Assembly (NCBI GenBank): GCA_002716485.1
Contig: PBBE01000047.1
Coordinates: 1-47,644 of the forward strand
Source: Actinomycetota bacterium
Lineage (GTDB): Bacteria; Margulisbacteria; Marinamargulisbacteria; GCA-2716485
Direction: 5' to 3'
Length of the DNA: 47,644 bases
Shown: piece by piece, positions 629 through 39,073 of the stretch
Layout of the letters: every line of letters begins with the position of its first letter
How positions within the stretch are numbered: the first letter of the stretch is position 1
Notes under the pieces: generated by a model
Databases searched by the model: none
What the model saw: only the letters and a program-made list of their open reading frames with translations
What the model was told of the DNA's origin: nothing
Translations under genes and position numbers: made by a program

Positions 629-2325
629 CCAAAGTGTAGGATGGGGTCTGTTTGACTGAGACCTAAATCCAGTCTAATGGCACCGACTGGGGTAAATATT
701 CGAAACCCAATTCCTTTTCCTTGTGAGAAATCAGAAAAAGTGGGTATGGGGCCCTTGTCAAAGGCATGGCCGATATCAATAAAGAACACACTTTGAAGAT
801 TTTTTAATACTTGCCATCGCAGTTCTATATTATTCAGTACTTTTCGGGTCCCGGTAAGCTCATAGTGATTGTCTTTTAAGCCTCTTAGTGAATAAGCGCC
901 TCCGAGTCGGTATTGTTCAGTTTCGATGGTTTTGATATTGCCTTGATTGGGTTCAAAGACGCCAATAGTTGTATTGATTCCAAGGATGACGCTTTCATAG
1001 AGAGGGAGAAATAAACGGTTATTAAATGATAATTGGCTGAAGTTGAGACCTTGAAGCGTGGTGATGCCGATATCGCCTCCTTTTTCTAATTCAATTTGCC
1101 AGAAGTGGCCACGTTGAGGGTTGCTGATATATTGTGTGGACTGAAATGATAGTGTAGAACCAATGGCATTAATGATGTAAGGGCTTAATTCGGTGTTTTG
1201 GTATCCCGAAATACGATCATGGCGATATTTTAATTGTAGTGTTAAAGGTCGGTGAGTGGGGGGGATGGTCATTCGAAAGGAGGCGCCTTCGCGTTGGGTG
1301 TTAATGGGGGTGGATTCGGCCACGCCTGAATCACTACTCAAATATATTTCTTGTTGGATGCTTTTCCAAATATTAATTTGACTGGAGATGGGTAAGTAGT
1401 TGAATGTCCAGGGCTGGTAATAACTGGCTTGATATCGTGTGATTTGTAATTGATTATCTTCTTGTCCAATTTGGACTTTAGCACTACTCATATCACCGGG
1501 TGTGATGCGATGAGAGGAGCTGGTTTGTAAGAACCCTAAAAATTGTTCAGATTCAGTTTCCAGACCTAGGGATAACTGGGATCGTTTTTTTTCTTTGACT
1601 TGAAAGGTGGCCAAGACCCCGTCTCGGGTCTGGGATAATTTAGGGGGTGAGATATAAGAGAAATACCCGGTTTTTAATAAACGGTCTCGGTTTTTTAGGA
1701 GCTGTTGTGAATTGAATTTTTCATTGCTTTTACGAGGGAGGTAGCGCCTTAAGAATGTATCTGGTAGGTAGTGAAGTCCTTGGAATTGGATTTTTTTGAA
1801 ATTACCTTCTGAGAGGGTGATTTGTAAGATGTTTTCTTTATTGAGTTGCATTTTGGTTACTTGTGATAGCTCGTAGCCTTTTTGGTGATAGAATTGTTCG
1901 ATATTTTCTTTGTCAGATTTAAGAGTATTAATATTGAGTGGGTGTTGGCGTTTATTGGATAAGTATGTATTTAAGATATCATCAGAAAATAGGCTGTTTC
2001 CAATAAATTCGATATTAGAAATGACGGGATTTTCTTGTAAGAGAAATTGGAGTTGGATACCGTTAGGGACTTGCGTGCTTTTAAAAGACACTTCATGAAA
2101 ATAGCCACTTTGGTAGAGTGTGTGGATATCTTTATTGACTTTATTGAGGGATAGTTTTCGAAATTGCTGTGAAGATAGATTACTAGTGGGGGGAAGTTGC
2201 TCAAGGGGCGTGTGTTTTCGACCGATATAGTGGATACTGGTAATGAGCGTATTTTCATCGTCTCCATAAAGGCTCATGGGAATGATGAGTAGCAGAGATA
2301 AAATGAGATAATATTTAAAATTCAT
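610..2325 (-). CDS. Omp85-family outer membrane assembly protein (BamA/TamA-like, POTRA domains plus barrel)
   Basis: Signal peptide MNFKYYLILSLLLIIPMSLYG; POTRA-like repeats; C-terminal GGAYSLRGL...GIGFRIFTPVGAIRLDLGLS...GLGQLF ending in Phe. Start trimmed from the ORF start at 2361 to the ATG at 2325. Confidence 0.92.
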   Translation of the reverse strand: MNFKYYLILSLLLIIPMSLYGDDENTLITSIHYIGRKHTPLEQLPPTSNLSSQQFRKLSLNKVNKDIHTLYQSGYFHEVSFKSTQVPNGIQLQFLLQENPVISNIEFIGNSLFSDDILNTYLSNKRQHPLNINTLKSDKENIEQFYHQKGYELSQVTKMQLNKENILQITLSEGNFKKIQFQGLHYLPDTFLRRYLPRKSNEKFNSQQLLKNRDRLLKTGYFSYISPPKLSQTRDGVLATFQVKEKKRSQLSLGLETESEQFLGFLQTSSSHRITPGDMSSAKVQIGQEDNQLQITRYQASYYQPWTFNYLPISSQINIWKSIQQEIYLSSDSGVAESTPINTQREGASFRMTIPPTHRPLTLQLKYRHDRISGYQNTELSPYIINAIGSTLSFQSTQYISNPQRGHFWQIELEKGGDIGITTLQGLNFSQLSFNNRLFLPLYESVILGINTTIGVFEPNQGNIKTIETEQYRLGGAYSLRGLKDNHYELTGTRKVLNNIELRWQVLKNLQSVFFIDIGHAFDKGPIPTFSDFSQGKGIGFRIFTPVGAIRLDLGLSQTDPILHFGLGQLF

Positions 2326-5300: not shown

Positions 5301-7348
5301 TTTGCTGAAAACTGGTGAATATGAAGATCTTTATGGGTTTTGTTTAGTTTGATTTTACCAAGGTCAAAGTCAAAATTAATGATTGGAAAAGGACTTATTG
5401 TGGCAGACATGGTGACTGAATATGGCATCATGTTTTGATGGTAAGGGAAGGTGATTTTGGGGAGTGTTGCTTGGCTTGAAAGAGAGAACTTTCCTTGTTT
5501 TGCTACTTTATCTAGGGGTAGGAGGTCATTGAAAGGGATGTCGGTGCCGGTGATATTAATTTCTAAGTGCTGTGGATATTGTTTGCTTGAAATTTCGATG
5601 GGTTGAGGATTATTGTTAAGCCCTATTTTTCCAGATAGGTGTTGTAATTGATGATTGCTGATTTTAAATTGTGTATTAAATTGATGTATTGATTGGTTAA
5701 ATACGGTATAGTCGTTGGCACTGGCACTTAGGGCAACTTGAAGGGTTTTATTTTGTTGTTTAATTTCAATGGTGCTTTTCATAGTTCCCGAACTGGGGAG
5801 TTTGGGAAATAAAATGCTGGCTGGTGATAGATCTTGGCTATGTAGTGTCAGATGGGTGGATGCTGGCTTGGGTTTTAATCGGATATGTCCGCTTCCTGAG
5901 ACAGGGATACCAAATACAGTTGCTTGGGGGCTACTAAGGACGAGTTTTTCAGGAGAAAATTCATAATTTAAAAGAAGCTTATGGATGGGGATTTCACTTA
6001 GAGAGGTTGCCTGGCTTTTGGCATGCCCTTTGACGTTTGGAGACTTGAGGGGGCCGTTAATTTCAATATTTGTTTGAATATCACCATGAAGTTTAAGGGC
6101 GGGGAATTGGGGGATTAGATGCGCTAGTGCTTGGCTATTAAATGTATGCGTATTTCCATTTAATGATAGGGTTTTTTGAGATAAGTTGATAATACCATTA
6201 GCTTGGATAGGGATATTTTGGATATGGCCTTTAATTTTTTTGAGCTCTACATAGGCGTTGGGAGAATGGATTAAATGGCGAATAGGGCTATTCGTTAAAG
6301 GGTGTGTTGAATTAAGTAGGTGGCCTGAATAATTGATGCTTTGTGATTGGATGAGGTTTTGAACGATTGGGATAAAGTTTTCTTGATCATGGTTAGTCAG
6401 CTCGCTCTTAATTAGACCTTGGCTGAGAACAAAGTTGCTTATAAGAAGATGTCCTTCAAGGGATTCAAAAGGTGTCTTTAGAAAGGGGATCTGTAGGGTG
6501 TTTTGGTTTAGGTCGAATTTGAGTTGATAGCCAATTCGGGATTTGGTATGGATGGTTTTGGGGAGGGTTTGGAGTTGGATTTTGGTGCTGAGGCTGCCAT
6601 GACTTAATTGGTATTTAGGGAGAGGTAATAGGTAGCTTCCCCAATGGCTTAGTGGGAGTGAGGGGATATGAATGCTTAATTGGATATGGGGGTGTGTTTT
6701 TTGGATCATTCCAGAGATTGAAATGGGGCTTTTAGAGTGAACGAGATCACCTTTAAGGCTAATTCCTTTTTTGGACTTTGAGTATGTTTCAATACTGCCA
6801 TTAATGTTATTAATATGTTCTGATAGGGCCGTTTCGTTTTTCTTTGGGTACCATCCGTATGAATCTTTAATGTGGATTTGGCCATTGGTGATTTGTAATT
6901 TGCTTCGGATGGGTACACTTGTTTGTTTGGCTGATGATGGGGATGTAAGTGGAAATGAAAATGGAAATTGCCATTTTTTTTCTGTATTTCGGTAGAAATT
7001 TATGTTGGGACTGTGCAGGTGGATTCGTGATAACCGATTTAAGAGGGGGCGCCTGGGTGTCAATAGGAGGATAATGGGGTTGAAAGATACTTGAATTTGT
7101 TCACACTTAAAGAAGGCATCGTTGTTGCTTAGGTAAATATTATGTAAATTTAATCGGTTAAATAGATTGGTAGAGACATGACTTATTTGAACAGAAGTGC
7201 TCAGTTGACGGCTTAATTGTGACTCAATGACCTGTTTGAGTGTGTCCTGAATGACCTGACTTTGATATAAAAGTCCAATGACTGAAAATAAGATCAGGAT
7301 TAGACTGATCATGATGATACGTAGCCATTGGGTTGTTTTTTTGATCAT
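2315..7348 (-). CDS. tamB: TamB/DUF490-like translocation and assembly protein (1677 aa)
   Basis: Very long beta-rich protein with one N-terminal TM helix; C-terminus typical of TamB (YNLGKNI...VNVKTNIDLQ...VAIRYSHEF); directly upstream of and overlapping omp85. Confidence 0.85.
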   Translation of the reverse strand: MIKKTTQWLRIIMISLILILFSVIGLLYQSQVIQDTLKQVIESQLSRQLSTSVQISHVSTNLFNRLNLHNIYLSNNDAFFKCEQIQVSFNPIILLLTPRRPLLNRLSRIHLHSPNINFYRNTEKKWQFPFSFPLTSPSSAKQTSVPIRSKLQITNGQIHIKDSYGWYPKKNETALSEHINNINGSIETYSKSKKGISLKGDLVHSKSPISISGMIQKTHPHIQLSIHIPSLPLSHWGSYLLPLPKYQLSHGSLSTKIQLQTLPKTIHTKSRIGYQLKFDLNQNTLQIPFLKTPFESLEGHLLISNFVLSQGLIKSELTNHDQENFIPIVQNLIQSQSINYSGHLLNSTHPLTNSPIRHLIHSPNAYVELKKIKGHIQNIPIQANGIINLSQKTLSLNGNTHTFNSQALAHLIPQFPALKLHGDIQTNIEINGPLKSPNVKGHAKSQATSLSEIPIHKLLLNYEFSPEKLVLSSPQATVFGIPVSGSGHIRLKPKPASTHLTLHSQDLSPASILFPKLPSSGTMKSTIEIKQQNKTLQVALSASANDYTVFNQSIHQFNTQFKISNHQLQHLSGKIGLNNNPQPIEISSKQYPQHLEINITGTDIPFNDLLPLDKVAKQGKFSLSSQATLPKITFPYHQNMMPYSVTMSATISPFPIINFDFDLGKIKLNKTHKDLHIHQFSAKNDASGIDIQGHFKHHIPQSFSVSVNRLPIENSHYLISKVPTPFLPLSGELSLHSHLNTNTSNKTVQSPHFQIRHTGQLQNGIIRNQPLDLLRFDSTWNTNGLQIHSLELKEKKSHLLMNGTTEKDKFALTLLPGSKLALENFQALTGLYGALSGDIQITGNIQGTRENPALQLTINGNNIKSNALNLDHVNSKFLFKNRHLTLNTLSINNQNNHYHIDGNIGPFQKNSLPNYLLSMNTQNADIQKTIHLISTFISEFTKTPLTYTIEDTPTSPQTPLVLKIEDPNFNQYPVTLFEHQSTESSLAFFLSKSSTQELPIITPIPDQSLIKGQLNTQLRIQSKPDATPLLDGNIDISQFEYKSNQINTVQAQLSPSENIQNIHILLQKGQLNQTPFDTLKSHLHIDEKQQVHIQSSFAQLNDHKQNNMIQGHFPVSFLMDPKNSSGNIDLSVHLQNKDLNLLSLFSPKITEITSTGNLSATLKGPLTKASVSGHLHLDTPSKVALTGPLKTTIINIPPLKSSIRQKQLSIPLSTFQWKDNNNTPNHLSFEGTLQLNSLNLITPKDSDLTLSFHIPSAQLSDIQSNYYSGNLQIKNLQLDGVRKPSKSTAQTGSPNVTMSLSGHLAIDNGNINTNPGQASQSPLIPIDLDLDVQLNQNIFINDSLIGNDLLSGVVIDLEMEPSTTPIKFLGNPNSLSILSPMTFKEGDLSIFNQNFQLLQPQDQQNYRQETQSERINNQLNFDNILIASNQAPNPIITLSALNIITESNPESEVSTNNITQYKHLLLSLSGPLTQINKLTIDVFKSPSNQPNNSQLTHIGQYQLIQDSQALSQNTSDTLDIMKLLMPEVFLKSDLSEFSQEDAIKLVSEFSENQINFLFRKEILRPLERKIINNTPLYDIQINYNLGKNINTLLTNQDRESNLLGLNLVHRLTKNLFINVKTNIDLQSENQKLIDQLSEIELTYYLLNNLTINYSNYRYLLNKDEFKPKVAIRYSHEF

Positions 7349-16545: not shown

Positions 16546-17790
16546 ATGGATAAGCCATTGGTATTGCTAATACATGGGGTAGACTCAGATTGTCAGGAGT
16601 TTGATCGGTATTTAACGTCTTATCAGCTGATGTCAGCAACGTCTTATCAAGAGGGTCGTCGGTTATTTGAGCAACATTTTTTTAATATTAGGGTAGTGGT
16701 TATTGATTTAGGGGTTGAGGATGGGCAAGGGGCTTCTATGGTTGAGGATTTACGTGCCATTAGTAGCCTTCCTGAAGTGATTGTTTGTTCGGAACAAAAA
16801 GATGTGAATGTGGCGGTTCATTGTATGAAGGTTGGGGCCTTTGATTATTTAGTCAGCCCATTTAGTTCAGAAATGATTCAACAGTCGGTGTTTTCAGCCT
16901 TGGACAATATGGACTATTTAAAGAAAATCCAAGAGTTTTCTCATTCTCAATTACTCTCCCAGGTTTCATTAGAAAAGCGGCTTCGTGAGTCGACCCAGCT
17001 ACGGGGTCAAAAGCTCAAAGACGATGCCTCTTTAGATGTGGCGGATTTATTGGATTTTTTTCCACATCCTGATTCAAGGGACCCCAAATTTGATGCCCAT
17101 CTTCAAGGGCTGGTGAAGCAGCGTTTAAAAGAAGAGCATGAAAAAAACGGAAAAGCCAAGATTTTATTGGTAGAAGATGAGCATGTGTATCGTGCCATGA
17201 TGAAGACGATGTTGACGGACCTTTATGATGTTTATGAAGCCGATACTCTGGATGGGGCGGTGGAGCAGTTGTCTTCGTCAGTTCAGTTTGATGTGGTGCT
17301 ATTGGATATTTTTTTACCGGATGGTTTAGGGACGGACCTGTTGCCTAAAATTGACGATTATCAGTCTGATGTCGAGGTTATTATTGTTACCGCCTTTGAT
17401 TTAATTGATAAGGCTGTTCAGTCGATTCGTGGGGGTGCATCGGATTACTTGAATAAACCAGTATTAAAAGAAGATATATTGAAGCGGGTTAAGGGGGCCT
17501 TGGATCGAAAATATTTGCGACAGATATTGCCTCAGATTCGAGATGATTTTGTTGAGAATAGGTTGACATCGGATGAGAAGTGTGGGATTCTTGATCGCCT
17601 ATCCGAGAGTCGAAGAGAGTCTGGTAAGACGATTTTAATGAAAGATATCTATGATATTTTTCGTAATTTACGACAGACCTTTATTCCGGATAGTGTTGCT
17701 GTTCCTGATAGTGTTTTAAAAAATGGCTTAAAGGGATTTGTGGATTCTTTAGAGCAACGGTTTTCGACCCCAGAGCTCACTGATTTATAA
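16546..17790 (+). CDS. Response regulator with two receiver domains and no recognisable DNA-binding output
   Basis: REC1 LVLLIHGVDSD...VVVIDLGVEDGQG...; REC2 KILLVEDEHVYR...DVVLLDIFLPDGLGTDLL...VIIVTAFD...DYLNKPV. C-term helical, no HTH seen. Confidence 0.88.
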   Translation: MDKPLVLLIHGVDSDCQEFDRYLTSYQLMSATSYQEGRRLFEQHFFNIRVVVIDLGVEDGQGASMVEDLRAISSLPEVIVCSEQKDVNVAVHCMKVGAFDYLVSPFSSEMIQQSVFSALDNMDYLKKIQEFSHSQLLSQVSLEKRLRESTQLRGQKLKDDASLDVADLLDFFPHPDSRDPKFDAHLQGLVKQRLKEEHEKNGKAKILLVEDEHVYRAMMKTMLTDLYDVYEADTLDGAVEQLSSSVQFDVVLLDIFLPDGLGTDLLPKIDDYQSDVEVIIVTAFDLIDKAVQSIRGGASDYLNKPVLKEDILKRVKGALDRKYLRQILPQIRDDFVENRLTSDEKCGILDRLSESRRESGKTILMKDIYDIFRNLRQTFIPDSVAVPDSVLKNGLKGFVDSLEQRFSTPELTDL

Positions 17791-17844
17791 CTTTAGTTGC
17801 AGGTGGATTAGAACTTTAGCCCTATTTATATTTTAAATAAAGTG

Positions 17845-17873
17845 TTGACAGATGAATGGATTTGGTGTAAATT
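17845..17873 (+). promoter_or_regulatory. Putative sigma70-type promoter for the 17942-27987 operon
   Basis: TTGACA (17845-17850)-17 nt-TAAATT (17868-17873). Confidence 0.5.
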
Positions 17874-17941
17874 TGTTTTTTGTTACGTTTATGTTTGTTT
17901 TATGTGTTTTATAACAAAATTGAAAGGGAGGTTTTTAATAT

Positions 17942-18265
17942 ATGAACGTATATGGTAAAGTGCTCCGGTCAAGTAGTAGTGACTCTAAAGTAGGTTATGG
18001 AGCAATGGAAAGCCTTCGAAGTGCAGCCGATGTTGCGACGAAGCTTGTTTCTGATGATTTAGATGAACTTGCTTCTGATGATAAAGATAAAAAAGAATCC
18101 CCTGGAGGTAGCCCCGTTGCGGATATTTTGAATCAAATGCAACTAGAGCAAAGCTCAGTGGAACTTCGATCATATGACGATCAGTTATTTGAATTGCGAA
18201 TGGAGGAGGCACAAAAGATTTTTAGATCGAGTGAGATTTGGTTTGGTTCGAGTCCGTCTGAATAA
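17942..18265 (+). CDS. Hypothetical small acidic protein (107 aa)
   Basis: GGGAGG about 10 nt upstream of ATG; same strand as and adjacent to the following giant ORF; no recognised family. Confidence 0.65.
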   Translation: MNVYGKVLRSSSSDSKVGYGAMESLRSAADVATKLVSDDLDELASDDKDKKESPGGSPVADILNQMQLEQSSVELRSYDDQLFELRMEEAQKIFRSSEIWFGSSPSE

Positions 18266-18325
18266 TTAATACTGCATAATTTGGTTTTATTTTTAAAGAT
18301 TATTTGAATGCAAGGGGATCTCTAA

Positions 18326-21300
18326 ATGGGATTTAAGAAGATTGTTTCATCTGTTAGCAAAAAATCTGTTGACAAAAATGAGTCTTACATTCGTTTCTAT
18401 ATCGAAGTTATTGTAAAGTTAGATCAGATTCTTGGTCCATATTCAGATGTTACTTCAGGTAATGCTTTGGTTCCCCTTGTTCAGAACTATAAGGAGAGTT
18501 ATTACTTTTGGAAGATTTTAGTTCAAATGCCAAGAGCTAATTTAATTTCTGATAATGATAAGAAGGATGACTCTATTATTAGTTTTTTTCTTGAGGAATT
18601 ACAACGGGCAATTAACCTGCATTTTTCTGAAGATCAAAATAAAGAATTGTATTCAACTCCAGAAATCCGTATTCAGGTAGAATTTTTTATGCGAAACATA
18701 TTTGAAAGTTGGTTGAAGAATATTTATAAGCCTAAAGAGATTATTGAGTTTTTGAACGATGAAGAATTTAGAAGCTTTCGTGATAAGATTCGTGAGCATA
18801 CGAAAAATTCGATTGCTCGACCAGATGCGTTAACTTGGCGCGATTATTTGAAGAGGAGCTTTAATCATGGGATGATTTTTTTTCACGCAATGTACAGATC
18901 AGGTCCTTCATTAAGACTTATAAATTTATTTCAAGATTTAAATGAACTTGACCCTGAGCCTGATCTGAGTAACAGTGCCAAGTCGCTGTTTTTGTGGCAT
19001 TCTGCGAATCAAATGACGAAAATGGCTGGCGTTGTTCAGAGATATGCTTATCCTTATGTTGTTTTAGATGGTAAAATTATTGTTGCTTCTGGTGCTCTTT
19101 CACCTTTATTGCAAAAATTCTCTAAGAGTTTTACGCCAAAAATGTCACCGACGAAAACGGTGCTTCCTTATGCTAACTTTGATGTTGTTAAAGGGGCGCA
19201 TTGGAATGAGGAGAAACATGCGATGCATCTTCTTTTTGGTATTGGATCTAGTAAGTCGGTGTTTGATAAGTTTCATGTGCGTGAAGTGCTTTTAGAGATT
19301 TATAAAAGCAACAATAGCGATGATTCGGGAATAAAAAAAAAGGGTGAAGGAGCACCTGATTCAGGTGATACGAAAATAAATCCTGGTTTAAATATTGGGA
19401 AAAGAATAGCTGAAGAGTCAAGTCAGCTATTACAGTCGTTGTTAGCGCGAGATAAGAGAAAGGTTCGTTTTTGTCAAGAAATTGATCTTGTAGTCAAGCA
19501 CTTTGATGGCTCAATGATGACTAAGGAGAGTGAGACAATGCTTAGACTTTCTTTAGCTTTAAATGGGGTAACGACTCTTTATGCAAGAGACCAAGAAAAT
19601 ACGTTTAAAGACAAGTATGGATTGGACGTACAAGAGCAGGAGCTTAAACGTATGTTAAAGTTGGACTCTAAGGGTGCATTTCATGAGATATTTAATAAAG
19701 TGTTTGTTGATAAATCACTCAAATCAGATGTAGGAAAAGAAATAGTAACATATATTGCAAACTCTGCTGAAAAACGTCGTTGGGCACAGGTTACCTTATT
19801 ACCTGTAATGACTCATTTAGTTCGGTGTTGGTCAATATTTAAACTTTTGTTTGACATGGAGAAGATACTTAAAGATAATTCTAATGAAAACTCTGCTGAT
19901 AATGCGGTGAATTGTTTGTTTGCATTTTGTGATCAAGGTTCTTTGAAGTTTAGATATTCTGCTAAAGACTCCTCTATTCAGGACTATACCTTTGTAGGTC
20001 AGGCTTTAAAAACATTGAAAGATTTATACCCGGATAGTTTTAAATCAAACTTATTTCAAGATGCATCGATTATCAAGGCATTTAACAAAAAAAAAGATGA
20101 ATATGAGTGGAATAATTTTAAAGATGGTACTAAATACCTACAAAAGGTGTTTAATAGAATAGATACGTATCGATGTTTACCTGATGCATTGGTTCCGTCA
20201 AAGGCGGATAAAGGAAATGCGCGGGATTTTTTTCCGCAACGTATTGATTCCAAGGAAGAGGCTTTTTTGGAAGAGGATAGTAGTGTTACTTTTGATAAAG
20301 CAACTAAAAATAAATTATCAGATCTTTTAGATGTGTTTTTCTTTTTTGTTGTAGGAATGTTTTATTCCAAGAACGAGCCTGATAATGACATGCCTTCAGG
20401 TGATAAGGTGGATGTGCAAAAGATAGCAGTATATCGTAACAAGGTTGCGGCCTTTAAAAAAGATGTGCTTAATGAAGTATTGGGAAAAATGATGGGTGAT
20501 TTTTTTGATGGTTATGAAGAAGATGGGTGCAAACAATTTAGGGTTTTTGTTTTACATGTATTGTTTGAAAAGGTAATCGAGACAGGTGCAGTTGGACCGA
20601 TTGCATCTTTAACTTCACGAGTAGCAATACAGCAGTTGCTGATTTTTTTCATGGGGGACGCAAATAATTTGTTAGCAAGATTGGAGGTTAAAAAGGGTGA
20701 CGCTAGTCATATGTTTAAAAGATTATTTTTTACAAAATGGTTTAGTAAAGACTCCTTGCTTTCACGGAAGTCTAGAAAAATAATTGATTTTAAATCGTCA
20801 GAATTTAATGAGAATTTTAGTGATAAAAAAAATTATTTCGCTTTAATCCAAGCTTTTTTTATTTATTTTTGCCAGGAGTTTTGGAATATTGAATTTGAAC
20901 TAGAGGAATTTGAAGAAAAGTTTAATGATTTTGAGGCTTTTTTGGATAAGGTTAAGCAAGTTGAACAAACGGATCAGGATTCTAAAATGGTTATTCAGGC
21001 AAGGGTTCGACTTGAAAGATTGCGACTACTTATTCAGGAAGATTTAAAGATTACTAAAGGACTTGAGGGTCCTGAGAAAAAAGATAAAGTGTTTAAATAC
21101 CGTGTTGCTTTATTATCTGCAATTTATGATTATCTTTGGTTGGCTAATAAGAGCGATAAAAATTATGATGAAGACGATGCCCGTAATTCATTTATTGTAG
21201 GTGTTCTTATTGAATTGAACTTAGTATTTAAAGCAATTAATGACAGTAAACCTATAAAGGAGTTCGTTGGGCTTGGAAACTCGGATGCAATGGTGCATCT

Positions 21301-22699
21301 AGATGCTTTGTTAAGAGAATCACTTTGTCATGCGCCGCCATTAATAGGGCAATTGCATGGTGTAACCAGAGATGTAAATGACACTCTTTTGGAAGGGTGT
21401 TTACGTAGAGAAGGAGATTTGCTTAATAAAAGCATAAAACTTAAGTATTGTATTGCCGATTTATTAGTTCAGCATCAGGTGTTAATCAGCCTTGGTTCTG
21501 ATCAGTATTCTTTTGCGGATCATTTATCTAGATCAGAGTTGGTGTTAGTTTTTCAGCATTTTAATGATTATGCTTACTTATCAAAAGACGATGAAGAATA
21601 TAAACGTTTGGAGGCGTTTTTTAATGAAAAGTTAAAAAGTGATAAGAAAGAGCTGGACTTAAATGGCTATATTGATGTTTTGAAAAAGGAAATAGATGTA
21701 GATGCACCGATATGGGATCATTTAATTAAGAAAAAAGTGATATATGGTGGAGATAGATTGACAGCTCGATTGAAAGCCCCGTTTATTACAGGATCAAGAA
21801 TGGATATCCAAAAAAGACTCTCTTTTTTAGGTAAGTATTCTAACTTGGTTTCGGAATTAGTTTTGCAACATCGTAGTGGTCAACGTGTACGATTTTATAA
21901 AGGAGAAGATGCTGTTATTTCATTTGGGGCTCAAGTAGAGGTTAATCCTACTGGAACAAGACGACTTGGAAAAGAGGTGCCTGTGGATGAATTTTATCCA
22001 CAGCGTTGGATAGATTCATTGCGTTGGGGACTTCCTAGGCATACTATTGATCCTAATTCGAAGCTATTTATGTTTAGTGCGGGTAGTGGGAGTTGTCCTG
22101 CTGGTCCAAAGTTATTTTGGCCAAAGTTGTTAGCAGAGGCTGGTTATTTTTTAGAGCCTCTTGTTAAGCCTTTATATGACAAAATAGGTTTACCTATTTT
22201 GTGTATTTCCTCTAATGAAAAATTTATGAACCCTATTCGAATAAGATCATTGGTTTTTCAAAATAGGGATACTAAAGATAGTTCTCAAGGTAAGCTTGAA
22301 GGTGATGTTTCTTCAAAAGAGCATAAGTCGAAAGAGTCTAAAAGAGATTCTGGGGATCTATCAGGCACACCCTGCAGTGAGAGGCAAGACACTAAAATGA
22401 AAACTAGACATTCTTTTCATGATTTTCAAGTTTTAAGTCGCGATAAAGCCCCCAACTATAGAAAAAAAGAACCAGCTAAATCTCGCCAAAAACCTAAATC
22501 TTCCATAGAAGCTAAATTTCGCCAAAAAGATAAAGTTTCTGAAGATAAGGATGCTCGTGGAGTCTTTAACTATAATACAAAGTATAATGGTCTAACTAGT
22601 AATTTTAATTTTGGTTCTGTTGAGTTTTCTGTTCTTGCTGCTTTTGCTTTTGCTTTTGCTGCTGCTGCTGCTGTTGCTACTGTTACTGAAGAGAAGTGA
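18326..22699 (+). CDS. Giant hypothetical protein (1457 aa) with remote cytochrome-P450-like landmarks and a hydrophobic Ala-rich C-terminal tail
   Basis: Ordered P450-like segments: VVLDGKIIVASGALSPLLQKF; C-helix-like GAHWNEEKHAMHLLF; K-helix-like HLDALLRESLCHAPPL; PERF-like DEFYPQRW (aa 1221-1228); Cys-loop-like FMFSAGSGSCPAG (C1257). AAGGGG upstream of ATG. Confidence 0.5.
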   Translation: MGFKKIVSSVSKKSVDKNESYIRFYIEVIVKLDQILGPYSDVTSGNALVPLVQNYKESYYFWKILVQMPRANLISDNDKKDDSIISFFLEELQRAINLHFSEDQNKELYSTPEIRIQVEFFMRNIFESWLKNIYKPKEIIEFLNDEEFRSFRDKIREHTKNSIARPDALTWRDYLKRSFNHGMIFFHAMYRSGPSLRLINLFQDLNELDPEPDLSNSAKSLFLWHSANQMTKMAGVVQRYAYPYVVLDGKIIVASGALSPLLQKFSKSFTPKMSPTKTVLPYANFDVVKGAHWNEEKHAMHLLFGIGSSKSVFDKFHVREVLLEIYKSNNSDDSGIKKKGEGAPDSGDTKINPGLNIGKRIAEESSQLLQSLLARDKRKVRFCQEIDLVVKHFDGSMMTKESETMLRLSLALNGVTTLYARDQENTFKDKYGLDVQEQELKRMLKLDSKGAFHEIFNKVFVDKSLKSDVGKEIVTYIANSAEKRRWAQVTLLPVMTHLVRCWSIFKLLFDMEKILKDNSNENSADNAVNCLFAFCDQGSLKFRYSAKDSSIQDYTFVGQALKTLKDLYPDSFKSNLFQDASIIKAFNKKKDEYEWNNFKDGTKYLQKVFNRIDTYRCLPDALVPSKADKGNARDFFPQRIDSKEEAFLEEDSSVTFDKATKNKLSDLLDVFFFFVVGMFYSKNEPDNDMPSGDKVDVQKIAVYRNKVAAFKKDVLNEVLGKMMGDFFDGYEEDGCKQFRVFVLHVLFEKVIETGAVGPIASLTSRVAIQQLLIFFMGDANNLLARLEVKKGDASHMFKRLFFTKWFSKDSLLSRKSRKIIDFKSSEFNENFSDKKNYFALIQAFFIYFCQEFWNIEFELEEFEEKFNDFEAFLDKVKQVEQTDQDSKMVIQARVRLERLRLLIQEDLKITKGLEGPEKKDKVFKYRVALLSAIYDYLWLANKSDKNYDEDDARNSFIVGVLIELNLVFKAINDSKPIKEFVGLGNSDAMVHLDALLRESLCHAPPLIGQLHGVTRDVNDTLLEGCLRREGDLLNKSIKLKYCIADLLVQHQVLISLGSDQYSFADHLSRSELVLVFQHFNDYAYLSKDDEEYKRLEAFFNEKLKSDKKELDLNGYIDVLKKEIDVDAPIWDHLIKKKVIYGGDRLTARLKAPFITGSRMDIQKRLSFLGKYSNLVSELVLQHRSGQRVRFYKGEDAVISFGAQVEVNPTGTRRLGKEVPVDEFYPQRWIDSLRWGLPRHTIDPNSKLFMFSAGSGSCPAGPKLFWPKLLAEAGYFLEPLVKPLYDKIGLPILCISSNEKFMNPIRIRSLVFQNRDTKDSSQGKLEGDVSSKEHKSKESKRDSGDLSGTPCSERQDTKMKTRHSFHDFQVLSRDKAPNYRKKEPAKSRQKPKSSIEAKFRQKDKVSEDKDARGVFNYNTKYNGLTSNFNFGSVEFSVLAAFAFAFAAAAAVATVTEEK
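22640..22672 (+). repeat. In-frame microsatellite (GCTTTT)3-(GCT)5
   Basis: gcttttgcttttgctttt (22640-22657) then gctgctgctgctgct (22658-22672), encoding AFAFAFAAAAA. Confidence 0.9.
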
Positions 22700-25600
22700 T
22701 TGTGGAGGAAAAGTTTTTAGAAGGAATCCATGAAAAATATGAGTTATTGTCTTATCAGGGACGCCGGGTTTTAGAGCGGCATTTTTTGTCGTCAGATGTG
22801 GCCCTTTTGCAACACTTTATGAAGGAATCGGGGGTGCTTAAAGCGTTGACGGAGCGTGTGGAAGGGGTGTTTTTGGAGCATTGCCCTACAGGTGGGTTTG
22901 ATAAAAAGATGATGTTTTATTTACCTGAAAAGGGACTTAGTTTGGGGCAATTGTTATCTAAAGGGCCGATGAGTATGTCGGACTTTTATGCGTTTATTTT
23001 ACCCTTATTATCCCGACTCAAAAAGGTATATGGGGCAGATTTTTTTCATGGGAACTTGAACCCGAATACCATTATTGTGGATTCAGAGAGCTTTGAAAGT
23101 TATTTCTTTTCAGTTTCATTTTATGCAGAATCTGAACAGGCGGTTCCGTTTTATATGGCCTTAGGGAAATCTATATTGGCTTATTGTGCGCCGGAACGGA
23201 CCCAGCGATTGACCTTGCCTTATGATCATCGCTCAGATTTTTATGCCTTGGGGTGCTTGATTTATGAGTGCTTAACGGGCACTTGTTTATTTGATTTTGA
23301 GAAGCCAGAAGAGATGGTTTTTGCCCATTTGACCCAATCGCCTCGGGAGTTGTTTGGATTGAAGGGGAAGGTGCCGGACTACTTTTCGCCAATGTTACTT
23401 AAAATTATTGAAAAGTTGTTGCATAAAGATCCTCATCAGCGGTATCAGGATATTGATAGTCTGATTTATGATATTTCTCAGACTCAGCGCTTGGCAAGTA
23501 CAGTAAGCTTTCCTTTGGATACCCAGGGGAAGTATCGGAATGTGGTTCTTTCTGATCAATATTATGGTCATCAAAAAGAAAAAGATCAGATGGTGAGTAT
23601 TTATAAGAATAGCTTAAAAAATTATCCGCAGTTGGTGTTAGTGGAAGGCGAGAAAGGGGCTGGAAAGACCCGGTTTGCACATTCTATATTACATGGGGCG
23701 TTTAAACCGTATCCATTTATTGTGTTGGTTTCATTGCAGCCAAAAAATCAAGAAGTGCCCTACTTTGGCTTAACTAAGTTGTTGGAGCAACTGGTATTTA
23801 AGTTGATTTCTCAGACCAACGAACAAGAAATAGAAGAGATTCGGCCGCAGTTACATTCGATTTCGGATGAGAATGTGGCTTTGTTGATGCAGTTGTGTAG
23901 TAGTTATTCGGCGTTATTGGAGTTTTTTGAGTTGGATACCAAAGTCACTCAGTCGACTCAAGTGGCTAATTTTGGCCATGCAGTGGTTCAGTTTTTATCC
24001 GTGGTGTCTTTAGTGAAGCCCTTGGTATTTATTTTTGATGGCTTAGAATTTGCAGATGAGGCCACGATTCGCTTTATTTCTCAAAGTTTAGTGGTTTTGA
24101 ATGATCGACCAGTAACGTTTGTTGGGACTATTGGGGATGAGGTGCTAGCGGAAGGGAATTTGGTATATTCAGTGTTGGTTCAGCCGTCTAAAACGATGTA
24201 TGACTATCATTTATTAAAGTTGTCGTTATTGACGGTAAGAGATATTAAGGCATTTATTAAAGATACATTTCACTATCGAGTGGAGCGATTGGATGAATTG
24301 GCGGCCATTATTATACAAAAGACTCATGGGAATCCGCACTATATCCGGCAAAGTGTATCCTTTTTATTAAAGGAAGGATACTTTAAGTATTTGACGGAAT
24401 CGTCGATTTGGAAGTGGAGTTCGGAGCAGGTGAAGTCCATTAAAGTGGCAGATTCAGCAGTTAATTTGCTTTTGGGTCAGTATCGGTCTTATTCAGATGA
24501 TATTCGCTTATTGGTTCAATATGCGGCATGCTTTAAAGATTCATTTACCATGCAGCAAATGGCGTCTTTATTGGGCTTTTCTAATGATGTTTTAATTCAA
24601 TATTTATTGACCTTAATTGACGATAATATTTTAGTCATGGTGAACCAATCGATTTATTTGCTTTCTTCTCGAACTTTAAGGGAGCAGTCGTACGTGCTAG
24701 AACAAGCTAGTTTTGATTTTTCGAATCCAAAGATTAGTGCCTTTATTTATGATCAAGTTGCGGCTCAGGAGCGATCTGAGGTGCATTTTCGGATTGGGAA
24801 GTTATTGTTGGGGCAGCAAGATCAATTGGATGAGATGTTTGCAGAATATAAGATTGTGAAGCATTTTAATTTATCTGACAGAGCGTATTTGGATAAATCT
24901 TTGGCGAGACAGTTGGTGAACTTGAATTTACTTGCGGGTCAAAAGTCGAAAGCAGCGGGGCATTATCAAAAGGCCTTGGTTTATTTTGATTTTGCCTTAA
25001 AGTTTTTAGATGCCTTGCATGATGAGTGGGATCAGCCGTTATGTTTTTCTATTTTATTGGAACGGGTGAGGTGTTTGTATTTTAGTGTGGGATATGAGGC
25101 GGCCTTAGATGCCATTTCCCAGGCATCTGAATATAGTATGTCGCGCTTGGATAAGGCCACCGTGTTGATGGAGCAATTATTTGTTGAAATTGAACAAAAT
25201 TACTTTAGGAAGGCGACGGAAACGGCTTATGAGATGTTGCGACATTGTGGGGTTTATTTACCCAAAATAAAGGCGGTTATTATTTTGTTTTTGATTTTGG
25301 AAGCGCAAAAGATTAAACGATTTATTCATTTGCCAATTGAGACGGATTTGGTTTTAGATCCCCAACAATCACGGCGATTAGAGTTGATGTTTCGGGGGTT
25401 TGAGCTATTAAATACAAGTGTGCATTTGGTGAATAATGAACTGTTTGCCTTATCGTCTCTTAAATTACTATCCGCGTCTTATCAGATGGGAGGCTCTGCT
25501 AATTCGGCCTCTGGTTTGACCATGTATTCATTTTGGTTAACTACCCAACATAAGTTAGATGAGGCATTTACTTTTTCTGAAAAGGCCATTGATATTAGTA

Positions 25601-27987
25601 ATCACTTTGGTGACCCGACGATGATTGGTCGGTCTTTGTTGGCTTATTATGGGTTGGTAGGGATTTGGAAGATTCCTTTAAGAGAGACAGCCCCTGGTTT
25701 GGAGAAGGCATTTCGTAATTTGATGTTTGCAGGGCAACCTAGTTACGCTGTTATATGCTTGATATTTTCATTTTTGAATCAATTTTTTGTGGGGGTCAAG
25801 GTGCCCTTGTTATCGCAGCATTTAGCGCGTATTTTTGGGTATTTGAAGGGGATGGGGGTTTCTCTTGAATCGACTTCAGAGGTTCCTGATGAGCCAATGT
25901 CGTCTAGTATGAGCTTGATTAAAGTAGATGGGACCTTAGTGGATGATTTAAATATGTATCACAAATTTGTTCAGGTTTTAGCGGGTGGTGGTGGCCATTT
26001 TGATGAAATAAATCAAATTGATTTTAAACAATTAGATGATCGTTTTGACGATGGGTCACCGGTAGGCGTCTTTATGATGGTTTTTTGCTTTTTTGATAGT
26101 CAATATGAAAAGGGGCTTGAGATTGGGGATCAGCTTTGGCGTATGATTAAAGATCGTCATTTGGCGGTTATTTATCCGTTGTATATCTATTATTATAGTT
26201 TATTGATTTATCAAGGCTTTCAGGGTGCAAGCCTAAGACGGAAATGGATTTATCGACGACGTTTGTCTTATATTGTGAAACTTTATGATGGGTTTCAAGA
26301 TCGCTGTCCCGAAAATTTTCGGACGATTTATTTGTTTTTGGATGCCAAGTTATCGCATTTGAGATCTCCTTCATTTAACACAGTTCGTTATTTTAATGAG
26401 GCCGTGAGTTTGGCCATTCAAGATCAGATGCCCCATGTGGCAGGCTTGTGTCATCAAGCATTAGCGGATATTTATGAAGAAGAAGGGGTGTACCATTTGG
26501 CGTATACTCATTTAAATGAGGCTGTTCATTATTATTCGAATTGGGGCTTGAGTTTGGGGGTTCAAGAGATGAAGCTTAAGGTTGAATCATTGTATGAAAA
26601 ATGTAATTTATCTAAAGGGTTTATGCTTAATTTTTCTCAAGGGCTGGATTTTAAACGTTTGATTAATGCGAGTCAGTCTTTATCTCAAGAGACGAATTGT
26701 AAGGCCTTATTAGAGCAATTATTGAAGGTGGCCATGGAAAGTGCGGGAGCACAAAAGGCGGTTATTATTCTAAAGAAAGGAACTGATTTTTTTGTGGAAG
26801 CATCCTTTGATCCGAAGGACAATCAGATGAAGGTGTTTCAATCGGTTCCGATTCAGTCGGCGGATATGTTACCGAAGTCTTTGATTCAGTATGTTATTTT
26901 TACTAAAACCAAATTGCTGATTCATAACGCGGAGGGGCATAAGTTATTTCGGACGGATCCGTATGTGATTCAGAATGAACCGAAGTCGGTCTTATGTTTG
27001 CCTATTTTTAAACAGGTGGCATTAACAGGAGTGTTGTATCTTGAAAATAACTTGGTTTTTGATGGGTTTTCTGAAGATTCCTTACAGGTGTTAGAGGTGA
27101 TTGTCTCTCAAGCCGCTATTTCTATTGAAAATGCAGTTTTACATGAGCAGAACCAAGATTTAATTCATAACTTAGAGGACCGGGTTTCGTCTCAAATTAA
27201 GCAAACGCAGATAGCTGAACAGGAAAAAAACCAGAGTTTGAAAATGGTGAAAAAAGTATCAGAGCATTCGGCTTATGCGACTTTGACTAGAGGAATAGCT
27301 CATGAGATTCGCAATCCGATGGGGCTTATTTTATCGGGAATGGAATTAATTTTGGATAATATTCATGATAAAGAGTTGGTTCAAACGTATGCTCAATCTG
27401 TGAAGCAGAGCATGTTGCAGTTGTCGAGTATTACAACGAATATGCTTAACTATGGGACCCCGGTTTCGGACAAACGAGTCAATATGTCGATTAATGAGTT
27501 GATCAAAGATGCGTTAATGATGGCACGAACAGAGTGTAAGAAACGACGAATTGTGGTGAAAACGATTTTTAGAGAGGTTCCTGATGTGTATGTGGATACG
27601 AATAGTATTAGTCAGGCGTTTTTAAATATACTATTAAATGCGATTGAGGCCATTGATATGAATGGTGAAATTCAAATAGAAACCTTTGAGAGTCAGTGGG
27701 TTAATGCGTCTGGTCAACAAGTGGAAGGGGTGAAAGTGTTGGTTCAAGATTCTGGAAAAGGGATTCCTCAAGATATCTTAGATGAGATCTATGACCCGTT
27801 TTTTACTACAAAACATCAAAATGTAGGATTAGGACTTTCTCTGGTATTAAAAACAATAAGAGAGCATGAGGGGTTAATTGATGTGATTTCAAATGATGCA
27901 GGCTTGACGTCGTTTATTTTGCATTTACCTAGACAAGGTATTATAGAAGGGCGACGTGAGGAGGCCCTTTCTCTTTCAGTTAAGTAG
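22696..27987 (+). CDS. Multidomain signalling protein: Ser/Thr pseudokinase - STAND-type ATPase - TPR-like - GAF - histidine kinase
   Basis: Kinase C-lobe YCAPER...DFYALGCLIYECLTG; Walker A EGEKGAGKTR; FIFDGLEFAD; GAF region near 26700-27150; HisKA RGIAHEIRNPM; HATPase NILLNAIEAI, DSGKGIP, GLGLSLV. GTG start overlaps the upstream stop (GTGA). Confidence 0.88.
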   Translation: MIVEEKFLEGIHEKYELLSYQGRRVLERHFLSSDVALLQHFMKESGVLKALTERVEGVFLEHCPTGGFDKKMMFYLPEKGLSLGQLLSKGPMSMSDFYAFILPLLSRLKKVYGADFFHGNLNPNTIIVDSESFESYFFSVSFYAESEQAVPFYMALGKSILAYCAPERTQRLTLPYDHRSDFYALGCLIYECLTGTCLFDFEKPEEMVFAHLTQSPRELFGLKGKVPDYFSPMLLKIIEKLLHKDPHQRYQDIDSLIYDISQTQRLASTVSFPLDTQGKYRNVVLSDQYYGHQKEKDQMVSIYKNSLKNYPQLVLVEGEKGAGKTRFAHSILHGAFKPYPFIVLVSLQPKNQEVPYFGLTKLLEQLVFKLISQTNEQEIEEIRPQLHSISDENVALLMQLCSSYSALLEFFELDTKVTQSTQVANFGHAVVQFLSVVSLVKPLVFIFDGLEFADEATIRFISQSLVVLNDRPVTFVGTIGDEVLAEGNLVYSVLVQPSKTMYDYHLLKLSLLTVRDIKAFIKDTFHYRVERLDELAAIIIQKTHGNPHYIRQSVSFLLKEGYFKYLTESSIWKWSSEQVKSIKVADSAVNLLLGQYRSYSDDIRLLVQYAACFKDSFTMQQMASLLGFSNDVLIQYLLTLIDDNILVMVNQSIYLLSSRTLREQSYVLEQASFDFSNPKISAFIYDQVAAQERSEVHFRIGKLLLGQQDQLDEMFAEYKIVKHFNLSDRAYLDKSLARQLVNLNLLAGQKSKAAGHYQKALVYFDFALKFLDALHDEWDQPLCFSILLERVRCLYFSVGYEAALDAISQASEYSMSRLDKATVLMEQLFVEIEQNYFRKATETAYEMLRHCGVYLPKIKAVIILFLILEAQKIKRFIHLPIETDLVLDPQQSRRLELMFRGFELLNTSVHLVNNELFALSSLKLLSASYQMGGSANSASGLTMYSFWLTTQHKLDEAFTFSEKAIDISNHFGDPTMIGRSLLAYYGLVGIWKIPLRETAPGLEKAFRNLMFAGQPSYAVICLIFSFLNQFFVGVKVPLLSQHLARIFGYLKGMGVSLESTSEVPDEPMSSSMSLIKVDGTLVDDLNMYHKFVQVLAGGGGHFDEINQIDFKQLDDRFDDGSPVGVFMMVFCFFDSQYEKGLEIGDQLWRMIKDRHLAVIYPLYIYYYSLLIYQGFQGASLRRKWIYRRRLSYIVKLYDGFQDRCPENFRTIYLFLDAKLSHLRSPSFNTVRYFNEAVSLAIQDQMPHVAGLCHQALADIYEEEGVYHLAYTHLNEAVHYYSNWGLSLGVQEMKLKVESLYEKCNLSKGFMLNFSQGLDFKRLINASQSLSQETNCKALLEQLLKVAMESAGAQKAVIILKKGTDFFVEASFDPKDNQMKVFQSVPIQSADMLPKSLIQYVIFTKTKLLIHNAEGHKLFRTDPYVIQNEPKSVLCLPIFKQVALTGVLYLENNLVFDGFSEDSLQVLEVIVSQAAISIENAVLHEQNQDLIHNLEDRVSSQIKQTQIAEQEKNQSLKMVKKVSEHSAYATLTRGIAHEIRNPMGLILSGMELILDNIHDKELVQTYAQSVKQSMLQLSSITTNMLNYGTPVSDKRVNMSINELIKDALMMARTECKKRRIVVKTIFREVPDVYVDTNSISQAFLNILLNAIEAIDMNGEIQIETFESQWVNASGQQVEGVKVLVQDSGKGIPQDILDEIYDPFFTTKHQNVGLGLSLVLKTIREHEGLIDVISNDAGLTSFILHLPRQGIIEGRREEALSLSVK

Positions 27988-34274: not shown

Positions 34275-34928
34275 TTATTGTACCGTTTCTTTAACGAGAA
34301 TGCTAATACGGCGGTTATTGGCTCTGTTTTGTTTGGAGGTATTCGGTGCAATTGGTTTGGTATCTGCATACCCAGTTACACGAAGACGGTGTGAGTTAAT
34401 TTTAGATTGAATTAGTCGTCTGGCTACGGCAGATGCTCTGGCAGCAGATAGTTCCCAATTAGATGGATAGATATCGGATTGGATGGGAATATTATCGGTA
34501 TGACCTTCAATAATAATTTGGCCGTTACTTTGTTGAAGAAGATGGCTGATTTTAATTAATATTTTGGAGGTGTTTGTTTTTATGCTGGCTTTACCCGAGT
34601 CAAATAATATTTCTGAACCTAGATTAATACGGATATTTTGGGGGGTTTGGATGATTTCAATATCATTTTCAAGTTGGTTTTCTATAATATAGGCATTTAG
34701 TGTATCGCTAATGTCTTGGAGTTGTTTTTGCTGATTTAAAAGGTCATTGAATGGGGAGTCGTTATTGTTGCTGAATGTATTGCTTAATGACGCTTGTGAT
34801 TCAATATATTTTCCGATATCGATTTCAGAAATAGAGTATAAATAAATGAAAAAGACGAGTAATAGAGTTAATAAGTCTGCCCAGCAGACAATAAAATGAT
34901 TTTTAGGTTGCTCGTTTAATTCATTCAT
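34275..34928 (-). CDS. motB: MotB-like stator protein (OmpA-like peptidoglycan-binding C-terminus)
   Basis: CWADLLTLLLVFFIYLYSIS plug/TM with conserved Asp; IIIEGHTDNIPI...NWELSAARASAVARRLI. Confidence 0.92.
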   Translation of the reverse strand: MNELNEQPKNHFIVCWADLLTLLLVFFIYLYSISEIDIGKYIESQASLSNTFSNNNDSPFNDLLNQQKQLQDISDTLNAYIIENQLENDIEIIQTPQNIRINLGSEILFDSGKASIKTNTSKILIKISHLLQQSNGQIIIEGHTDNIPIQSDIYPSNWELSAARASAVARRLIQSKINSHRLRVTGYADTKPIAPNTSKQNRANNRRISILVKETVQ

Positions 34929-35695
34929 TTGTTTGGTTTGAGCTTTTTACGCTCTTTTTCGGGTAGGCACATGGACATTTTTTCATAGATCATATAATTG
35001 GTCTCTTTTTGGGCAATGCAGATGATGCCTTCTAAGAGCATTTTCTTTTGGATTAGTTCTTCATTACTTGCAATTCGTAGACGACCTGATAGGGGTTGAA
35101 AAATGAGGTTCGCCAATAGGATGCCATAGAATGTTGTAATCAATGCGATGGCCATGTTAGGACCAATCGTCTCAGGGCTTTCTAGTTCTGACAGTAAGTT
35201 AATCAGTCCAATTAATGTGCCAATAAATCCGAATCCTGGAGCATATTGGGCCATTTGCTCAAAAAAATGGATACCTTGGTTATGTCGAGACTGGATAAAG
35301 TCAATATTTTTTTCTAAGATGGGAACTAATTCTTTGACGGGGATATTATCAATGAGTAGTTGAAGACCATGTTTTAAATAATGGTCTTGGGTTTTTTTGA
35401 CGGTTTTTTCGAGAGATAAGCGGCCATTTTTTTTGTAGTTAGTGGCGATTTCGCTCATGTGTTTGATGTCTTGTAAGTAGTCTCTGCCTCGTGGCGAGAA
35501 AATAACTTTTAACCGGCCACCAATTCGAAATAGCTGGGTTAATGGGAAATGGACGAGGGTGGCACCGAAAGTGCCGCCCATGACAATTAGAAATGAGGTT
35601 GGATGTACAAATAAATGGATTCCTTTTTCGATGCCAATGGCTTGAATAATGAGCCCGCAACCTAATAATACGCCTAAAAATGCGGTGATGTCCAT
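34925..35695 (-). CDS. motA: MotA-like stator protein
   Basis: GTFGATLVHFPLTQLFRI...YAPGFGFIGTLIGLINLL...MAIALITTFYGILLANLIFQPLSGRL; 4-nt overlap with motB. Confidence 0.93.
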   Translation of the reverse strand: MDITAFLGVLLGCGLIIQAIGIEKGIHLFVHPTSFLIVMGGTFGATLVHFPLTQLFRIGGRLKVIFSPRGRDYLQDIKHMSEIATNYKKNGRLSLEKTVKKTQDHYLKHGLQLLIDNIPVKELVPILEKNIDFIQSRHNQGIHFFEQMAQYAPGFGFIGTLIGLINLLSELESPETIGPNMAIALITTFYGILLANLIFQPLSGRLRIASNEELIQKKMLLEGIICIAQKETNYMIYEKMSMCLPEKERKKLKPNK

Positions 35696-37788: not shown

Positions 37789-39073
37789 TAGTTTTAAAAA
37801 TTTGGATTCGGTTATTACCAGAATCAACGACATATAAGGTGCGGGCACTACTATCATAGTGTAATTGACGAGGGAATTTAAACTCACCTGTATCGCTGCC
37901 TTCTTGGCCCCAGTTGGCAACGTGAAGGCCGGTTCTTATATCAAATATTTGGATACGATGATTAAACGTGTCTGAAACGTATAGATGGTGGTTGGCGCTA
38001 TCTATGGCCATGCCTTCTGGGCTTTTGATATTGCCTGTACTGGTACCATATTTAATTGTATTAAATTGGGTGAGCTCATTATTGCTTAATCGTTGTACAA
38101 TACTTAATTCTTTGTTGACGATGTAGACATCGTTATCATAATGGGCCAGATCATAGGCAAATAAGGTGGCGTTACTGTCTTGGAATGAGCTTGTGGGGCC
38201 AGTGTGGATCCGGTGGTCATCGAGGCTGCTATAGACCACCGATGTGAGATTGCTTGGGTTGGCTCTGACGGCAATGGGGTTATCTAGATTGTTGATCGGG
38301 ATAAAGGGATCTCCACTTTCTCCCCAATTATCAGGGTCAAATTTGATGATACGGTTATTACCAGAATCAGCGACCCAGATTCTGCTCCCGTCATAGGTGA
38401 GTCCTCGGGGATATCTAAATTGAAACTCGCCAGACCCTGCAGTGCCATAGGTGGCCATTAAGCTGCCAGAGGGGGCATATTTTTGGATTCGAGAGTTTAG
38501 GGTGTCTGATACATAAATATTTTTGTTGCTATCTAGGGTAATGCCCGTGGGATGGATGAGTGCGTCATTGGGGGTAATATTGAGTTGATGGGACATAAAT
38601 CCGGTATATTTGAGTGCTTTGGGTGAGGATGATGAAAATGTGTAATTTCTAGTTGAAATGGCTTGTAAAATAAAATTATAAGTAGTAAAGCCTTCACTTA
38701 ACTTTTGCTCAAGGATATATTGGTATATGATGGCATTGTTAATGGAAATATTTTCAGTGATAATTAGTAGGTCTTGGTTGTTTTTATTAGGTTCAACAGG
38801 GAATTGTTGGATGTATTGGTAGGGCTGGGTGCTTCCTTCGGTTTTGAAAGCCAATTTGTAATGGTCTACATTTTCGGGGTTATTGATAATCCATTTGATG
38901 GTAATAAATTGGGTGGCTTTATCGAGTTCGATTGATGAGATCATTGGAATGCTTTGAAAATCGTCAAATTTAACAGTGGCGGTTAAATTATCGATGGGGC
39001 TGGATGTGCAGCCGATAATCAGGCCTAAGCAAAGAAGGATTGTACTGACTTCGATATGCAGCCTTTTGATCAT
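37775..39073 (-). CDS. NHL-repeat lipoprotein
   Basis: Lipobox LIIGC; repeated IYVSDTLNSRIQKYAPSG, IWVADSGNNRIIKFD, LYVSDTFNHRIQIFD, LYVVDSGNNRIQIF. Confidence 0.88.
   Translation of the reverse strand: MIKRLHIEVSTILLCLGLIIGCTSSPIDNLTATVKFDDFQSIPMISSIELDKATQFITIKWIINNPENVDHYKLAFKTEGSTQPYQYIQQFPVEPNKNNQDLLIITENISINNAIIYQYILEQKLSEGFTTYNFILQAISTRNYTFSSSSPKALKYTGFMSHQLNITPNDALIHPTGITLDSNKNIYVSDTLNSRIQKYAPSGSLMATYGTAGSGEFQFRYPRGLTYDGSRIWVADSGNNRIIKFDPDNWGESGDPFIPINNLDNPIAVRANPSNLTSVVYSSLDDHRIHTGPTSSFQDSNATLFAYDLAHYDNDVYIVNKELSIVQRLSNNELTQFNTIKYGTSTGNIKSPEGMAIDSANHHLYVSDTFNHRIQIFDIRTGLHVANWGQEGSDTGEFKFPRQLHYDSSARTLYVVDSGNNRIQIFKTNDDT

What the first reader, a model, noticed from the sequence alone, without database searches (positions are those of the whole stretch)
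16546..27987. Signalling island: double-REC regulator + acidic orphan + P450-like giant + pseudokinase/STAND/GAF/histidine kinase
Four same-strand genes sit between oppositely oriented housekeeping genes; the last two are coupled by a GTGA overlap. Linkage of a sensor kinase with an atypical P450-like protein recalls Streptomyces conservons (sensor kinase + small proteins + GTPase + P450), but no roadblock protein or GTPase is present, so it would be a different design. The P450-like protein may sense or make a ligand read by the kinase.
Basis: inference. Interest (0 to 1): 0.7.

Follow-up and report, generated by a model that had tools for sequence, protein, structure and literature searches.

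The report
Hypervariable giant protein beside histidine kinase
In an uncultured bacterium and its relatives, a sensor-kinase gene sits behind a small serine-rich protein and a huge orphan protein that changes much faster than its neighbours, which looks like a recurring signalling cassette with a fast-evolving partner rather than a one-off gene cluster.

Summary
The four genes are real: a double-REC regulator, a 107-aa Ser/acid-rich orphan, a 1457-aa giant and a 1763-aa pseudokinase/AAA_16/GAF/histidine kinase with a GTGA overlap. The P450 label fails for the window's own giant: no Pfam, PDB or profile support, only a chance-level match that lands in register on the heme-Cys loop. But the giant in the same position in another family of the order (G003) carries a significant, degenerate P450 core. 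The main result is comparative. A triad of Ser-rich small protein, giant orphan (918-1892 aa) and histidine kinase recurs in G003, G005 (twice) and G006. In the window and G005 it fills the rpsB-regulator...tgt interval; G002 has that interval without it. Giants of different families are mutually unrecognisable; between G005 and G006 the adjacent kinases are 74% identical, the giants 25%. Outside this order the kinase core usually lacks a giant, and the regulator belongs to the rpsB neighbourhood, not to the triad. Best reading: a two-component system with a fast-evolving accessory partner, by analogy with conservon accessory proteins. Function is inferred. A rival, nearly as likely: the giant is a regulated effector or surface protein.

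The parts
16546..17790 (+). double-REC response regulator (no known DNA-binding domain). REC1 degenerate, REC2 (17161-17493) canonical, ~80 aa conserved C-terminal region of unknown fold
   Evidence: Pfam; alignment with 7 relatives; relatives in 16 of 74 phylum genomes
17845..17873 (+). sigma-70-like promoter match TTGACA-17-TAAATT in the 151-bp gap upstream of the triad (not more than chance)
17942..18265 (+). 107-aa Ser-rich (17.8%) acidic, probably disordered small protein, first gene of the triad
   Evidence: a Ser-rich small ORF precedes all six giants, and only 9 of 181 ORFs of that size reach 13% Ser
18326..22699 (+). 1457-aa giant orphan protein, GC3 0.27 against 0.40 for the kinase; Lys/Ser-rich tail
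   Evidence: no credible Pfam/NCBIfam/PHROG/PADLOC/PDB/plasmid/phage/viral/genome match; GC3
21908..22105 (+). P450-like meander and Cys loop of the giant (EFYPQRW ... FSAGSGSCPAG, Cys1257), suggestive only
   Evidence: hhalign best hit lands in register on the heme-Cys loop, E 0.15, equalled by 5 of 60 shuffles
22631..22687 (+). C-terminal hydrophobic Phe/Ala segment of the giant (possible tail anchor)
   Evidence: hydropathy
22696..27987 (+). histidine kinase: pseudokinase (22939-23445), AAA_16/STAND NTPase (23560-24120), helical middle, GAF (26704-27126), HisKA (27280-27453, expected phospho-acceptor His1536), HATPase_c (27595-27936)
   Evidence: Pfam; motif alignment; 26% identity over nearly full length to the G003 kinase

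Best explanation
A two-component system with an accessory triad. The intact HisKA/HATPase core of the 1763-aa kinase autophosphorylates on His1536 and passes phosphate to the canonical second REC domain of the neighbouring double-REC regulator. The giant, made with the kinase from overlapping genes, and the small Ser-rich disordered protein act upstream as a physically associated partner that sets kinase activity. Fast divergence of the giant suggests that it faces a variable ligand, competitor, phage or host. In one relative the giant kept the C-terminal half of a P450 with altered ExxR and no meander, which fits a heme- or ligand-binding sensor role better than a monooxygenase. Shown: gene order, recurrence, domain content, intact kinase and REC2 motifs, and the rate contrast. 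Inferred: phosphotransfer, giant-kinase binding, signal and output.
For: The order Ser-rich small ORF, giant, kinase occurs in the window, G003, G005 (twice) and G006, with small-to-giant and giant-to-kinase junctions of -4 to 136 bp; a second small-giant pair in G006 lacks the kinase. All six giants are preceded by a Ser-rich ORF, against 5% of ORFs of that size. The place beside regulator and rpsB is used in window, G005 and G006; G002 has regulator, rpsB and tgt with no triad. A related kinase core also sits beside a double-REC regulator, convergent to it, in G012 and in G005 and G006. The 4-base overlap of giant and kinase is the same in window and G003. Precedent: conservon accessory proteins CvnE (P450) and CvnF (GAF) accompany kinases without sensory domains, and CvnF8 binds its kinase and stimulates autophosphorylation (PMC13343842).
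Against: The giants share no detectable fold or domain across families, so a common function is an argument from position only. The triad kinases are not one clade and range from 434-aa membrane kinases to 1763-aa STAND kinases; the window kinase already has GAF and STAND domains and would not obviously need a separate sensor. The window giant has a different GC3 from its neighbours. No binding or phosphotransfer data exist.
Confidence: 0.4

Rival explanations
1. The giant and small protein are fast-evolving effectors or surface proteins used against competitors, phages or a host, and the kinase/regulator pair controls when they are made. The signal flows from kinase to giant, not from giant to kinase.
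For: Extreme divergence of giant (25% identity) and small protein (no alignment above chance) between congeners whose kinases are 74% identical; Ser/Pro-rich small proteins; hydrophobic segments in some giants.
Against: The giant and kinase genes overlap in two families, which favours matched amounts of both proteins; no toxin, effector or defence domain was found. The regulator has no recognisable DNA-binding domain.
Confidence: 0.33
2. The giant is a working or recently working P450-type enzyme that makes the ligand read by the kinase.
For: The G003 counterpart has a significant P450 I-helix-to-L-helix core with the Cys ligand; the window giant has Cys and a PxxRW-like motif in register.
Against: G003 has ExxK in place of ExxR and lacks the meander; the window giant gives no significant match; the giants of G005 and G006 give no P450 match.
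Confidence: 0.08
3. The giants are unrelated orphan genes that landed in a tolerant insertion spot between regulator and tgt; the triad is coincidence or decaying remnants.
For: No homology between giants of different families; low GC3 of the window giant; G006 has a giant without a kinase.
Against: Order, the Ser-rich small gene and overlaps or short gaps recur in three families, including at a different chromosomal place in G003; reading frames of 918-1892 codons stay open; the first giants of G005 and G006 are homologous over ~650 residues.
Confidence: 0.15

Closest known systems
Conservons / actinobacterial G protein systems with accessory CvnE (P450) or CvnF (GAF) (PMC13343842)
   Same: Histidine kinase with an operon-encoded accessory protein, in some cases a P450, thought to set kinase activity
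   Different: No roadblock protein or Ras-like GTPase here; giant is far larger than a P450 and hypervariable; a double-REC regulator is present; not an actinobacterial system
HstK / cbSTKIII dual Ser/Thr-histidine kinases of filamentous cyanobacteria (PMC2176072, citing Phalip et al. 2001)
   Same: N-terminal protein-kinase domain, GAF and HisKA in one long protein
   Different: Kinase-like domain here lacks HRD and DFG motifs; linked to a giant orphan and a small Ser-rich protein, partners not described for HstK in the passages read
Cytochrome P450 (PF00067)
   Same: G003 giant has the I-helix to L-helix core and Cys-ligand loop; nearest solved relatives by sequence are CYP51
   Different: Only the C-terminal half is recognisable, ExxK, no meander, within a 1892-aa protein; window giant not significant

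Membership tests
[quoted passage not shown]
   HisKA/HATPase_c, (role only; CvnA orthology not tested)
Conservon (AGPS) | MglB-type roadblock protein (CvnB) and Ras-like GTPase (CvnD) in the operon | tested here: not met
   no such domain in the four genes or the nearest flanking genes
Conservon (AGPS) | optional accessory P450 (CvnE) | tested here: inconclusive
   not significant in the window giant; degenerate P450 core in the G003 counterpart
Cytochrome P450, window giant | match to PF00067 over its cut-off | tested here: not met
Cytochrome P450, window giant | FxxGxxxC loop with ExxR and PxxR | tested here: inconclusive
   FSAGSGSC and PQRW present, no clear ExxR in register; score at chance level
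Cytochrome P450, G003 giant | match to PF00067 | tested here: met
   38.8 bits over two adjacent stretches against cut-off 22.8; whole-protein score 21.9, just under it, E 8.6e-5; hhalign 97.9%
HstK-type dual kinase | protein kinase domain, GAF, HisKA and HATPase in this order | tested here: met
HstK-type dual kinase | catalytic Ser/Thr kinase motifs | tested here: not met
   HGN for HRD, no DFG
Two-component system | conserved H-box His and canonical REC Asp/Lys | tested here: met
   LTRGIAHEIRNP in kinase; ED, D, T, K in REC2
Two-component system | phosphotransfer between this kinase and this regulator | not testable with these tools
   adjacency only, in window, G005, G006, G012

The most novel reading that the evidence does not exclude
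A previously undescribed signalling cassette in which a histidine kinase has its own hypervariable giant partner and a Ser-rich disordered companion, these two evolving as fast as recognition or arms-race proteins while kinase and regulator stay conserved; some giants are built on decayed enzyme folds such as P450.
Probability: 0.3. Interest if true: 0.8.

Novelty: new variant of a known kind. Interest (0 to 1): 0.55.

Why it matters
If true, it shows a kinase-plus-accessory-protein design outside Actinomycetota, with the accessory protein turning over so fast that homology is lost between families while its position is kept. That would make a poorly known lineage a place to test what drives such divergence (phage, host or competitor), and it is a reminder that orphan giants can be matched by position when sequence searches fail.

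Tried and rejected
Single-sequence AlphaFold2 models of giant residues 759-1340 and of the regulator were useless (pLDDT 38.7 and 39.1), so no fold search was run. A motif-by-eye P450 reading of the window giant was dropped as proof: hmmsearch --max gave no hit, profile scans put the best places elsewhere (two K-helix-like stretches at 744 and 990 exceed shuffles but lack a Cys loop at the right distance), and the hhalign E of 0.15 is matched by 5 of 60 shuffles. My first P450 profile was built from wrong frames and was discarded; some searches were script failures. Searches of plasmids, phages, viral contigs and species genomes with the giant found no relative. A defence-system origin was considered: PADLOC hits are to the kinase-like domain and a REC domain, plus weak ones. 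A single clade of giant-linked kinases was tested and not found. A weak common segment between window and G003 giants (PIL-SxNE-xMxPIR, E 0.006 to 0.06) was left unexplained. Conservon membership was rejected.

Full report
What is there. The four ORFs are as described, at 16546-17790, 17942-18265, 18326-22699 and 22696-27987, all on the + strand between oppositely directed genes: rpsB and tsf on the left, a TrkA-type K+ channel and tgt on the right. The giant and kinase share GTGA. The regulator has two REC domains; REC1 has lost its acidic pair and Lys (SPF in place of KPF), REC2 is canonical, and the C-terminal ~80 residues are conserved in relatives but match no Pfam family. The kinase is a pseudokinase (HGN, no DFG) joined to an AAA_16 NTPase with an intact Walker A, a long helical middle, GAF, HisKA and HATPase_c. 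The promoter match at 17845 exists but is not more than chance gives; the 151-bp gap makes a separate transcript for the triad plausible.

Is the giant a P450? For the window giant, not demonstrably. Pfam, NCBIfam, PHROGs, PDB sequences, plasmids, phages, viral contigs and species genomes gave nothing credible, and PF00067 found nothing in the genome even at E 10. With a profile built from P450s fetched here, hhalign's best place in the whole 1457 residues is 1195-1257, in register with the meander and heme Cys, but E is 0.15 and 5 of 60 shuffles score as well. I treat that as a hint. For the giant in the same position in G003, yes: PF00067 gives two adjacent stretches (38.8 bits together; 21.9 bits for the whole protein, just under the 22.8 cut-off), hhalign gives 97.9% over residues 1572-1733, and phmmer's best solved structures are CYP51s (E 0.007). 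Its K-helix reads ExxK and its meander is missing, so it is a degenerate P450 core.

The comparative finding. In G003 (same order, another family) the order is 161-aa Ser-rich ORF, 1892-aa giant, 1726-aa kinase, with the same 4-base overlap; the kinase is 26% identical to the window's over 1,700 residues. In G005 the stretch between rpsB and tgt holds the double-REC regulator, then two triads in tandem on the other strand: 243-aa Ser/Pro-rich, 1275-aa giant, 1383-aa kinase-like protein; and 105-aa Ser-rich, 985-aa giant, 434-aa membrane kinase. G006 has 104-aa small ORF, 918-aa giant, 434-aa kinase, regulator, rpsB, preceded by a second small-giant pair without a kinase; its tgt was not in the fetched stretch. 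G002 has tgt, regulator and rpsB with nothing between regulator and tgt. Thus the window's triad occupies an interval that exists without it elsewhere. In G003 the neighbours of the triad are different genes.

Rates. Between congeners G005 and G006 the identities are tsf 77.5%, HK434 74.0%, rpsB 67.2%, regulator 53.3%, first giant 25.3% (z 24, clearly homologous), small protein not above chance, second giants barely alignable (z 2.3). So the giants and small proteins diverge far faster than a kinase encoded next to them. Six of six giants are preceded by a Ser-rich ORF (13.5-19% Ser), although only 9 of 181 ORFs of 80-260 aa in the fetched loci reach 13%; the 13% line was drawn after seeing the data. 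Window and G003 giants share at best one short stretch (E 0.006 in the two-sequence run, 0.06 in the larger run).

What does not belong. The regulator keeps its place beside rpsB with no triad in G001 and G002 and is antiparallel to it in G005 and G006, so it is a neighbour and likely partner, not an operon member. Kinase-core or kinase relatives outside the order (G007, G009, G011, G012, G015, G021) have no adjacent triad; G011 has a small/1026-aa gene pair divergent to its kinase that may or may not be related. G019 and G002 could not be judged because their kinases lie at contig ends. A second kinase of G003 (L207) also has no giant before it. The triad kinases do not form one clade, so kinases may have been exchanged within the triad.

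How it most likely works. Kinase core to REC2 phosphotransfer is the conservative reading, backed by intact motifs and repeated adjacency. The giant, whose gene overlaps the kinase gene in two families, is most simply a physical partner that sets kinase activity; conservon accessory proteins CvnE and CvnF, found with kinases lacking sensory domains, are the closest precedent, and CvnF8 stimulates its kinase in vitro (PMC13343842). That precedent is an analogy: the roadblock and GTPase core is absent. The competing view, that the giant is an effector or surface protein controlled by the kinase, explains the fast divergence about equally well.

Limits. All genomes here are fragmentary and unnamed; the window's own genome is 56% complete. 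The closest named rpsB matches are unnamed MAGs (nzgw233, TH-Jun18-244), so I do not assign a phylum. Structure prediction from single sequences failed.

Noticed in passing
window 610-2361 and 2315-7348 (-): A POTRA-containing 583-aa protein beside a 1677-aa orphan without a Pfam hit; the arrangement recalls TamA/TamB and suggests an outer membrane. TamB identity not tested.
   Followed up: partly
window 34275-35695 (-) and 39070-40917 (-): MotA/MotB-like pair (MotB with OmpA domain) and, nearby, a protein with a Peptidase_S74 endosialidase-chaperone domain in a setting without obvious phage genes.
   Followed up: no
L184 4100-7057 and L186 5147-7903: The two homologous giants share a WH...NC-x-x-DD-x-A stretch that recalls the DDxxD/E metal motif of class I terpene synthases; resemblance by eye only.
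   Followed up: no
L107 giant residues 485-501 and window giant residues 1290-1306: Short shared stretch PIL-SxNE-xMxPIR followed by a disordered region, at different places in the two giants; also G[ST]PCSER in the window giant tail and the G003 small protein.
   Followed up: partly
L105 (G017:C40:9058-9195): A P450 Cys-loop fragment with stops in frame, apparently a P450 pseudogene.
   Followed up: no
L109 4903-8842 (-): In G011 a 217-aa/1026-aa gene pair lies divergent to an HstK-like kinase; possibly a distant version of the small-giant pair, but the small gene is less Ser-rich (9.2%).
   Followed up: no
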